From NCBI GenBank assembly GCA_020881915.1, contig JAJFPB010000001.1, positions 3,534,001 to 3,598,000 of the forward strand: a stretch of DNA of 64,000 nucleotides, in the 5' to 3' direction. A program made the position numbers and the translations under genes. Each line of letters starts with the position of its first letter. The stretch's first letter is position 1. The DNA comes from Paramyrothecium sp. XJ0827. Its lineage: Eukaryota > Ascomycota > Sordariomycetes > Hypocreales > Stachybotryaceae. Below the pieces are notes generated by a model. The model was given only the letters and a program-made list of their open reading frames with translations. It was not told where the DNA came from and made no database searches. Below are positions 1-1,915 of the stretch, one piece after another.

Positions 1-1915
1 TTCGAGACTCACTTCAATGACTTGATTCATATGCGAGCAGCGCGTGATACTCGCCGGCATTACATGGAATCCCAACTTTACTTTAGCCCACACCTTGACA
101 CAACCCAAAAAAATGCCATTCGCTCGTCTTTCTTTCACGAAGAGACATGGCATTTAAGAGAAATGCGTGTGTTGAGATGCCAAAGCCAATCAGCATGCAT
201 GCACGGAACAGAAGGCCCATACGCAAACAAATATGAACCACTCAAGATTCTGGGCAAAGGGAGCTTTGGTGTTGTAAGACTGGTTCGTGAACGTTCCACT
301 CCACAGAGCCACTCGCCACCGCAAGTCTTCGCCATGAAGGTCATTCGGAAATCTGACATGCTTCGGAGCAGTCAGGAAGGCCATCTTCGAGCGGAGAGAG
401 ACTTCCTTGTGGCATCCGAAGGCTCAGACTGGTATATACACCTACTGCGCGAGCATGTTGCTTTTGCTAATTTCTTTGCTTTCAGGATTGTGCCGCTGGT
501 AGCAAGCTTCCAAGACGCGTCAAACCTCTATCTCGTCATGGAGTATATGCCAGGTGGGGACTTCCTTGGGCTTCTCATCCGAGAGAACATTCTCGACGAA
601 GCAGTCGCCCGTTTCTACATAGCGGAGATGGTCCTCGGGGTTGAGGAGGCACATCGCCTGAAGTGTGTTCATCGTGATATCAAGCCTGACAACTTTCTCG
701 TATCTGCTTCAGGGCACCTGAAATTGTCCGACTTTGGGCTCGCCTTCGATGGTCACTGGTCTCACGATGCCTCGTACTACAATTGCCATCGCTACTCGTT
801 GTTACGCAAATTAGGTATCAATGTGAGCGGCGACGATGTTGATCAAAAGGAGGGACGCAACATCCACACACAACTCAAATGGGCTCAGACGCTCATGAGC
901 GGTTTGGAACGGCACGAAAGGCGAGATGCGTCGAGCGAAGACGACCTTTGTGATCTTGTGGAGTGGAGGAATCAATGTAGCAATCGGGCAGCTGCGAACT
1001 CCGTGGTCGGTACCAGTCAGTACATGGCTCCGGAAGTGGTGCAAGGGCTGAAATACGACGGAAGATGCGATTAGTAGAGCATAGGCATCATCCTGTATGA
1101 GTGTCTCTATGGGCATACTCCTTTTCTTTCAGAGGCTGGGCGTCAACAGACGAAACAGAACATCTTGGTGAGTCGTCTTAGCTACTTATTAATTTCAACA
1201 TCAAGCTGACCCGAAGCAGGAACACAGAACACGCTTCTACTTCCCTCAGCATCCAACGTCTAGCGAGAAGTGCAAAGATCTGATATATCGCCTTATTCAA
1301 AATATGGAGGATCGTCTATGCTCCAGGCGATACCAACTGAAAGATCAAGGTCAACTCGACGGAGGTCGACAGGTTGAGCTCCTCGGGCCGTTTGTCTTCC
1401 CAGATGATGGCGAAGACATCAAAGCCCATCGTTGGTTCAAAGGCGTTCCATGGAATCATCTGCATGCCCTCAGCCCACCTTTCATACCTCATATTCACGG
1501 AGCTGAGGATACGCACTATTTTGACGAATCTGAACCTATCAAGGATTGGTCTGAGAGCTCGCCATCGTTCGCAGGTCCTACCGCGGCTGACGTCAGGGTC
1601 GTTCTGAGTGATTACCGTGCAGAAGTGCAGGATATTGCAATCAGACTGGTGGCTACTCCATTAGATTCGGCCAAGCTTCGCGGACTCGATCAACAAATCG
1701 ATTCGACAGTATCCCTGACAACCGAAGAACGCGAAGTGCTCAAGCACTTTATAAGATTTTATGGCAAGAAAGAGCGGAAACGTCCACGAGATCGGCTGCT
1801 CAGGGATGGAAGCACGAAGCAATTGGTGTTGGACATTCGAAAGAAAACGGCATTTTTAGGATACACATGGCGCAGAATGACACCATTAGGAGGGGCAGCC
1901 CCTGGTTGGGCATGA
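1..1915 (+). CDS. PUK1: NDR-family AGC protein kinase, PUK1 ortholog (5' end outside window; two in-frame TAG codons needing recoding)
   Basis: Serine/threonine kinase of the NDR/LATS branch. The frame is open from base 1, so the N terminus probably lies upstream. Visible landmarks: glycine loop (GKGSFG), ATP-binding Lys (codon 337-339), HRD catalytic Asp (676-678), DFG (730-738), an NDR-type insert, activation-loop Ser (1000-1002), APE (1027-1035) and a C-terminal hydrophobic motif FLGYTW with its Thr at 1865-1867. Introns by splice signals: 432-485 (54 nt, stop-free) and 1168-1219. Codons 1072-1074 and 1075-1077 are both TAG where the family has Asp-Trp-Trp-Ser; the frame continues correctly (SIGIILYECLYG) to the natural end. 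From memory, Fusarium graminearum PUK1 has the same tandem UAG pair, recoded to UGG by A-to-I editing in perithecia. I therefore infer a functional, conditionally expressed gene. A plain pseudogene is the alternative. Confidence 0.85.
1072..1077 (+). other. Tandem TAG codons, predicted A-to-I recoding site
   Basis: Two adjacent amber codons replace the invariant Trp-Trp of the NDR kinase core. Editing A1073 and A1076 to inosine would restore both Trp codons. Each A has T before and G after it, the preferred context for fungal editing. ATGC (1065-1068) can pair with GCAT (1079-1082), placing both adenosines in a 10-nt loop. Editing itself is inference from family knowledge; no RNA is visible here. 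Confidence 0.8.

What the first reader, a model, noticed from the sequence alone, without database searches (positions are those of the whole stretch)
1072..1077. Kinase with tandem UAG codons that A-to-I mRNA editing could turn into Trp-Trp
An otherwise intact NDR-family kinase has TAG-TAG exactly at the invariant Trp-Trp of the CDWWS motif, and the frame continues to a normal hydrophobic motif at the C terminus. A decayed gene would be expected to show other lesions; none is seen. From established knowledge, sordariomycetes perform ADAR-independent A-to-I editing during sexual development, and PUK1 of Fusarium graminearum is recoded at just such a UAGUAG pair. Presence here implies that this species keeps the editing system and makes the full kinase only in sexual tissue.
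Basis: partly seen in the sequence, partly recalled or inferred. Interest (0 to 1): 0.95.

Follow-up and report, generated by a model that had tools for sequence, protein, structure and literature searches.

The report
Kinase gene needing RNA-edited stop codons
This mould's copy of a kinase gene known for making spores in sexual fruiting bodies carries two stop codons that its relatives correct in the messenger RNA, and the same genome keeps the genes for the editing machinery and a second meiosis gene built the same way, so the find is real but belongs to a known kind.

Summary
In detail: TAG-TAG lies in frame at 1072-1077, exactly where related NDR-type kinases have Trp-Trp, and no other stop or frameshift breaks the gene. 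By its best hits the gene is the ortholog of PUK1 (F. graminearum) and stk-21 (N. crassa), in which editing of these codons is published. The nearest named relatives of the genome are Paramyrothecium and Stachybotrys (Stachybotryaceae), not Fusarium. P. foliicola's predicted protein ends at the same residue. Of 90 Sordariomycete models compared, 73 lack one or both Trp through skips or truncation; 26 of 26 Leotiomycete models encode both. The part after the stops is about as conserved as in species with encoded Trp-Trp. The genome encodes Tad2, Tad3 and an Ame1 ortholog with the Met-Val pair needed for editing. Unexpectedly, its AMA1 ortholog (meiotic APC/C activator) has two more in-frame TAG codons, one at a Trp found in 105 of 120 orthologs and in an ideal editing context. 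Pseudogene, RIP and intron explanations fit poorly. Editing itself is untested: no RNA was available. Verdict: a new member of a known kind, well supported; new are the family, the AMA1 site and the prediction of a working sexual stage.

The parts
1..431 (+). PUK1 exon 2, part inside the window (kinase N-lobe; catalytic Lys codon 337-339). The 5' end of the gene lies outside the window, at G000:C7:3533214-3534000
   Evidence: Pfam Pkinase
432..485 (+). intron of 54 nt, in frame (GTATAT...TTTCAG, branch-like CTAAT)
   Evidence: the spliced frame matches orthologs
486..1167 (+). PUK1 exon 3: HRD codons 670-678, DFG codons 730-738, GTSQYMAPE, then the two stops, then SIGIILYECLYG
1072..1074 (+). 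in-frame TAG at the first Trp of CDWWS; candidate edited A at 1073
1075..1077 (+). in-frame TAG at the second Trp of CDWWS; candidate edited A at 1076
1064..1089 (+). predicted RNA hairpin: 5-bp inner stem (1064-1068 with 1085-1089) and a 16-nt loop (1069-1084) that holds both As
   Evidence: not stable in all longer folds
1168..1219 (+). intron of 52 nt (GTGAGT...AAGCAG, branch-like CTGAC)
1220..1915 (+). PUK1 exon 4: rest of the C-lobe, AGC-type tail with FLGYTWRR, final stop TGA 1913-1915

Best explanation
The gene is the PUK1/stk-21 ortholog of a fungus of or near the Stachybotryaceae. Its genomic copy specifies a kinase that stops at the start of helix F and should be inactive. In ascomata, the tRNA deaminase Tad2-Tad3, turned towards mRNA by the sexual-stage partner Ame1, should convert the A of each UAG to inosine. 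Ribosomes would then read Trp-Trp and make the full kinase for ascospore formation. Shown here: the codons, the otherwise open gene, conservation after the stops, the stop position shared with a near relative's model, the encoded machinery, and a second such gene. Taken from F. graminearum and N. crassa papers: the mechanism and the stage. Inferred: that editing happens in this species.
For: (1) Two TAG and no other stop or frameshift in 847 codons. (2) The TAG pair replaces the Trp pair exactly. (3) Of 120 listed hits (of 7069), 26 of 26 Leotiomycete models encode CDWWS; of 90 Sordariomycete models 17 do and 73 skip or stop there; the other 4 are unnamed metagenome proteins with Trp-Trp (class labels recalled from genus names). 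The N. crassa model, species with published UAG, is among the 73; the Pyricularia oryzae model, species with published TGGTGG, is among the 17. (4) Paramyrothecium foliicola's protein, 90% identical before the stop, ends at ...YDGRCD. (5) In the stretches compared (residues 321-560 and 601-847) 49 of 49 post-stop columns that are at least 95% conserved keep their residue, and 104 of 106 pre-stop ones do. (6) Ame1 ortholog with Met-Val 31 residues before the nucleophile Ser, Asp at +58 and His at +98, the spacings of M500, V501, S531, D589 and H629 in the paper; 103 of 120 listed hits have MV, the 5 Leotiomycete ones KN. Tad2 with HAE and PCVMC, Tad3 with V for E. (7) AMA1 ortholog with two in-frame TAG, one at a Trp found in 105 of 120 listed hits. 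(8) Editing context: 5, 3, 5 and 6 of six preferred bases at the four As (two in PUK1, two in AMA1), and all four in hairpin loops in +-30 nt folds. (9) No second PUK1 copy found; the next best genomic match is 41% identical.
Against: No RNA data. The A at 1076 has a middling context, 3 preferred and 3 depleted bases. The hairpin does not hold both As in folds of +-40, 75, 100 and 200 nt, and hairpin placement is common anyway (0.31 of 75 U-A sites of the CDS). Against its Stachybotrys relatives the post-stop part evolves relatively fast: the distance ratio post/pre is 2.45 to P0001 and 2.1 to P0008. Pairs of like distance have a median of 1.59 and a 95th percentile of 2.27 among Leotiomycetes (166 pairs), 1.96 and 2.14 among Sordariomycetes with Trp-Trp (7 pairs), 1.65 and 2.30 among those without (144 pairs). 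Measured against all Leotiomycetes the ratio is ordinary, 1.50, rank 53 of 94. GC3 is 0.54 before and 0.48 after the stops. The RID candidate (a gene stop-edited in F. graminearum) shows no stop within its matched stretches. Single editing sites are often not conserved between species (PMC5381528, passages).
Confidence: 0.9

Rival explanations
1. A decaying pseudogene: the kinase is no longer used, and the two G-to-A changes (the type that RIP makes) are the first lesions in a clone or lineage that has lost sex.
For: TG to TA is the RIP type of change (established knowledge). The post-stop part is on the fast side against the two Stachybotrys relatives. Five descriptions of the family shown in PMC11905103 give the sexual morph as undetermined (passages).
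Against: RIP indices of the gene are ordinary for the window: TpA/ApT 0.49 and (CpA+TpG)/(ApC+GpT) 1.38, while the thirty-two 2-kb windows range over 0.41-1.00 and 1.09-1.50. Twelve other TGG codons and 47 CAA/CAG/CGA codons stand. 49 of 49 highly conserved post-stop columns are kept. The P. foliicola model stops at the same place, so the state is probably older than the species, with no further stop or frameshift since.
Confidence: 0.05
2. A real or alternative intron removes the stops, and the protein lacks CDWW.
For: Public gene models of 73 of 90 Sordariomycetes skip or stop here; 22 resume exactly at the Ser after the second codon, as if an intron ended on a TAG.
Against: 24 frame-keeping GT...AG stretches of 45-150 nt span the stops (donors 900-1072), none with a CTRAY branch-like site; there is no such site anywhere in 896-1160, which also covers stretches ending on either TAG. 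All three of the gene's own introns have one. Each such intron would delete part of the kinase domain at helix F. In F. graminearum cDNA showed that the intron is an annotation error (PMC4817773, section 4), and the same kind of error is described for CHE1 (PMC11169179, passages).
Confidence: 0.02
3. The truncated product is itself the functional protein, for example a scaffold or competitor, and the rest is untranslated.
For: The unedited mRNA would encode 584 residues with an intact N-lobe.
Against: The 261 residues after the stops align to kinase C-lobes, with E 1.3e-16 to MRCK beta, and diverge like those of species with encoded Trp-Trp: median post/pre ratio 1.61 against 17 Sordariomycetes with Trp-Trp, where 127 pairs of these among themselves have 1.61.
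Confidence: 0.02
4. Ribosomal readthrough or a suppressor tRNA decodes UAG.
For: Not looked for here.
Against: Tandem stops are read through poorly (established knowledge). Editing of these same codons is published in relatives.
Confidence: 0.01

Closest known systems
PUK1 (FGRRES_01058) of Fusarium graminearum
   Same: Orthologous kinase type, tandem UAGUAG in the kinase domain changed to Trp-Trp codons by editing, U before each A (PMC4817773, passages and section 4)
   Different: Another family (Stachybotryaceae); no transcript evidence here. The F. graminearum sequence itself was not compared
stk-21 (NCU03242) of Neurospora crassa and FVEG_01191 of F. verticillioides
   Same: Stop at the same motif, edited in perithecia (PMC4817773)
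   Different: Only one of the two codons is UAG there: the first in N. crassa, the second in F. verticillioides
FgTad2-FgTad3-Ame1 mRNA editing complex (PMC11087585, passages)
   Same: Orthologs of the parts are encoded here, with the MV pair of Ame1 and the degenerate Tad3 site
   Different: Activity, expression and the short isoforms not tested here
FgAMA1 premature-stop editing (PMC11156358, parts 1-2 of 3 read)
   Same: A meiotic APC/C activator gene that carries an in-frame TAG
   Different: The TAG at codon 496 here lies where the F. graminearum model (P0281) has Trp, so this site is probably a different one; the place of the Fusarium site was not seen
CHE1 of Fusarium (PMC11169179, passages)
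   Same: A conserved premature stop whose automated gene models truncate or insert a false intron
   Different: A zinc-finger gene edited in hyphae

Membership tests
PUK1/stk-21 orthologs | PUK1-type kinase domain and tail over the whole length, one copy in the genome | tested here: met
   own-genome search gives itself, then 41%. No reciprocal search or tree was made
PUK1/stk-21 orthologs | Catalytic Lys, HRD and DFG present | tested here: met
PUK1-like premature-stop-correction genes | In-frame UAG where relatives have Trp, rest of the frame intact | tested here: met
PUK1-like premature-stop-correction genes | Stop shared with close relatives | tested here: met
   P. foliicola model ends at the same residue; S. 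chartarum model resumes at the Ser after the second codon. Protein models only, no DNA of relatives
PUK1-like premature-stop-correction genes | U at -1 and preferred bases from -2 to +4 (PMC9600606, section 6) | tested here: met
   U at -1 in both. A1073: 5 of 6 preferred, 0 depleted; A1076: only 3 of 6, 3 depleted
PUK1-like premature-stop-correction genes | A in a hairpin loop | tested here: inconclusive
   Both in a hairpin in +-20, 25, 30, 35, 50, 60 and 150 nt folds; at +-40 A1073 is unpaired and A1076 in a hairpin; not both at +-75, 100 and 200; controls 0.31
PUK1-like premature-stop-correction genes | A-to-G in sexual-stage cDNA, pure A in DNA | not testable with these tools
   No reads held
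PUK1-like premature-stop-correction genes | Perithecium-specific expression | not testable with these tools
   No RNA held
Sordariomycete mRNA editing system | Ame1 with MV at the Tad3 interface | tested here: met
   L012/L014
Sordariomycete mRNA editing system | Tad2 and Tad3 | tested here: met
   L020/L022 and L023; named by motif, not by tree

The most novel reading that the evidence does not exclude
In a family known mostly from asexual moulds (recall; one search shows five undetermined sexual morphs), stop-codon editing is not a relic but is still recruiting new targets. AMA1 has gained a UAG at a Trp that the models of its own relatives P. foliicola and S. chartarum still have. That would mean that this fungus has a working, perhaps unseen, sexual stage, and that UAG at conserved Trp in meiosis genes can be read from a genome as a sign of sex. 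Ten further AMA1 models, nine of them Xylariales and one Tolypocladium, resume exactly after the same Trp, so this site may be gained repeatedly.
Probability: 0.6. Interest if true: 0.6.

Novelty: new member of a known kind. Interest (0 to 1): 0.42.

Why it matters
It extends a published editing switch to another family, with the genes of the machinery and a second target in the same genome. It offers a cheap genomic test for an active sexual stage in moulds whose sexual morph is undetermined. It also suggests that public models of this kinase are misannotated in many Sordariomycetes: 73 of the 90 listed lack part of the motif at the edited codons.

Tried and rejected
Pseudogene by RIP: rejected as main reading. 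Intron over the stops: rejected. Second intact copy: none found. RID candidate as a further edited gene: no stop within its matched stretches; that it is RID is by recall. Other TAG-split frames in the window: 17 TAG with 70 or more codons on both sides, against 12 TAA and 27 TGA, so no excess; the kinase's own tandem TAG is not among the 17. Three of the 17 were scanned against Pfam; the only one with domains, a KH protein at 7348 on the minus strand, has its TAG in what reads as an ordinary intron, with donor, CTAAC and TAG acceptor. The first AMA1 TAG (codon 112) lies where orthologs do not align (116 of 120 gapped), so it stays undecided. Species name: not reached; only the family is inferred from best hits. 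Class labels of the 120 PUK1 hits and of the Ame1 and AMA1 hits are recalled from genus names, except Paramyrothecium. That P0116 is stk-21 and P0075 the M. oryzae PUK1 ortholog is inferred from species and sequence kind. Papers: searches for Stachybotrys with A-to-I editing and Paramyrothecium with RNA editing found none in the held library. Not run: structure prediction, a gene tree, any RNA test.

Full report
What is there. Window 1-1915 on the plus strand holds the 3' part of a kinase gene whose 5' end lies just upstream on the same contig. The spliced CDS has 847 codons and a final TGA; the only irregularity is TAG TAG at window 1072-1077, codons 585-586. Exon borders are my reading of GT...AG sites and frames. 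A gene for an FKBP precedes it (named by recall and by the FKBP-type domains fused to the kinase in models P0001 and P0083).

Exactness. Against solved structures, the piece before the stops ends at CBK1 residue 345 and the piece after begins at 348; in STK38 223 and 226. The Sclerotinia ortholog P0034 aligned to CBK1 shows CDWWS at that place. The stops therefore replace precisely the two Trp. The unedited product would lack helices F to I and the AGC tail and should be inactive (established knowledge of kinases).

Relatives. Of the 120 hits listed (of 7069 passing), the nearest over residues 240-847 is Stachybotrys chartarum (72%); over the part before the stops Paramyrothecium foliicola has 90%. 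The AMA1 search gives P. foliicola at 83%. The genome (51.8 Mb, 15 contigs) thus belongs to or near the Stachybotryaceae (lineage of Paramyrothecium), not to Fusarium. I did not reach a species.

Scars in public gene models. I aligned all 120 listed hits and classed each at the CDWWS motif; classes of fungi are recalled from genus names. Leotiomycetes, in which editing has not been found (PMC11087585 and PMC11156358): 26 of 26 encode WW. Sordariomycetes: 17 of 90 encode WW; 22 resume exactly at the Ser after the second codon; 13 resume at the second Trp; 38 have other skips or end there. Four unnamed metagenome proteins encode WW. The 22 and the 13 are what a gene finder does when TAG itself serves as a false acceptor, as was shown by cDNA for F. 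graminearum and described for CHE1; the 38 may include errors of other kinds. Two controls fall where they should: the N. crassa model (species with published UAGUGG) is a skip; the Pyricularia oryzae model (species with published change to G in the genome) is WW. P. foliicola's model ends at ...YDGRCD on an 8-Mb contig, the same stop position as here. These are protein models, so the codon states of relatives are inferred.

Constraint after the stops. In the stretches compared (residues 321-560 and 601-847) the gene keeps 104 of 106 pre-stop and 49 of 49 post-stop columns that are at least 95% conserved. The post/pre distance ratio against Leotiomycetes is 1.50, rank 53 of 94. Against its own relatives S. 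chartarum and S. elegans it is 2.45 and 2.1. That is high: the 95th percentiles of pairs of like distance are 2.27, 2.14 and 2.30 in the three groups tested, and the maxima 2.46, 2.20 and 2.58. The pair of those two relatives has 2.5, so this may be a trait of the family. It is a point against, but not decay.

Machinery. Of three DUF726 genes, one (L012/L014, G000:C8:2186.8-2187.9 kb) has Met-Val 31 residues before the nucleophile Ser and Asp and His at +58 and +98. These are the spacings of M500, V501, S531, D589 and H629 in Ame1 (PMC11087585, passages). In 120 listed hits (of 414) the pair is MV in 103, IV in 9, KN in 5 (all Leotiomycetes) and other in 3; in the F. culmorum model it lies at 500. 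The in-frame TAA in this gene lies in what reads as an intron. Tad2 (HAE, PCVMC; G000:C9:2136.5-2136.9 kb) and Tad3 (V for E; G000:C7:5669.7 kb) are present by motif (search). A MAT1-1-type locus with alpha-box and HMG-box genes is at G000:C9:2591-2596 kb (the type is my reading).

A second edited gene. Of the three CDC20/CDH1-type genes over the family's cut-off, one has an in-frame TAG. It is the AMA1 ortholog: its best hit is named 'Meiosis-specific APC/C activator protein AMA1' of P. foliicola. With four exons its CDS has exactly two internal TAG, codons 112 and 496 (numbers with the splice site used for, 498 with the other). Codon 496 (G000:C14:1526273-1526275) aligns with Trp in 105 of 120 listed hits (of 888), Tyr in 1, Ser in 1 and a gap in 13. 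P. foliicola, S. chartarum and F. graminearum models have Trp, so the UAG here looks recent. Ten of the 13 gapped models, nine Xylariales and one Tolypocladium, resume exactly at the next residue. The A has all six preferred bases, which 2% of 1038 TAGs in the window have. The Fusarium AMA1 gene is also stop-edited (PMC11156358), but at this Trp the F. graminearum model is intact.

Editing context in PUK1. A1073 has 5 of 6 preferred bases and none depleted, A1076 3 and 3 (preferences from PMC9600606, section 6). In +-30 nt folds both lie in a 16-nt hairpin loop; in longer folds the picture is mixed, and 0.31 of 75 control U-A sites are in hairpins too.

Mechanism and limits. The best reading is sexual-stage A-to-I correction by Tad2-Tad3-Ame1. 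Nothing here shows RNA. Presence of a UAG-bearing gene implies use of editing only because the rest is conserved and the machinery is encoded. One paper holds that the puk1 stops may be neutral mutations tolerated because editing exists (PMC5381528, passages); nothing here excludes that.

Novelty. The PUK1 switch has been known since 2016. New, as far as the searches go, are the family, the AMA1 Trp site, and the reading of gene-model scars across the 120 hits. In the held library no paper joins Stachybotrys with A-to-I RNA editing or Paramyrothecium with RNA editing; most papers of subscription journals are not in it, so earlier reports of the AMA1 site or of tandem TAG in other genera cannot be ruled out.

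Noticed in passing
G000:C14:1526273-1526275 (L045 1939-1941) and L045 628-630: Two in-frame TAG in the AMA1 ortholog; the first-named lies at a Trp found in 105 of 120 listed hits, in an ideal editing context.
   Followed up: yes
AMA1 models P0320, P0327, P0338, P0342, P0345, P0352, P0353, P0358, P0360 (Xylariales) and P0347 (Tolypocladium): Gene models that skip and resume exactly after the same AMA1 Trp: likely independent gains of TAG at one codon.
   Followed up: partly
G000:C9:2591-2596 kb (L035): MAT1-1-type mating locus with alpha-box and HMG-box genes next to an APN2-like gene (named by eye). The other HMG-box hits of the genome were not examined for a second mating type.
   Followed up: partly
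window 6428-7936, minus strand: KH-domain protein gene whose in-frame TAG at 7348 lies in what reads as an ordinary intron; a useful contrast to the kinase.
   Followed up: yes
window 2165-3791, minus strand: Gene downstream of the kinase that looks like a neutral sphingomyelinase/ISC1-type phospholipase (named by eye, not searched).
   Followed up: no
window 54001-56000: Highest TpA/ApT ratio of the thirty-two 2-kb windows (1.00), a possible RIP-touched stretch.
   Followed up: no
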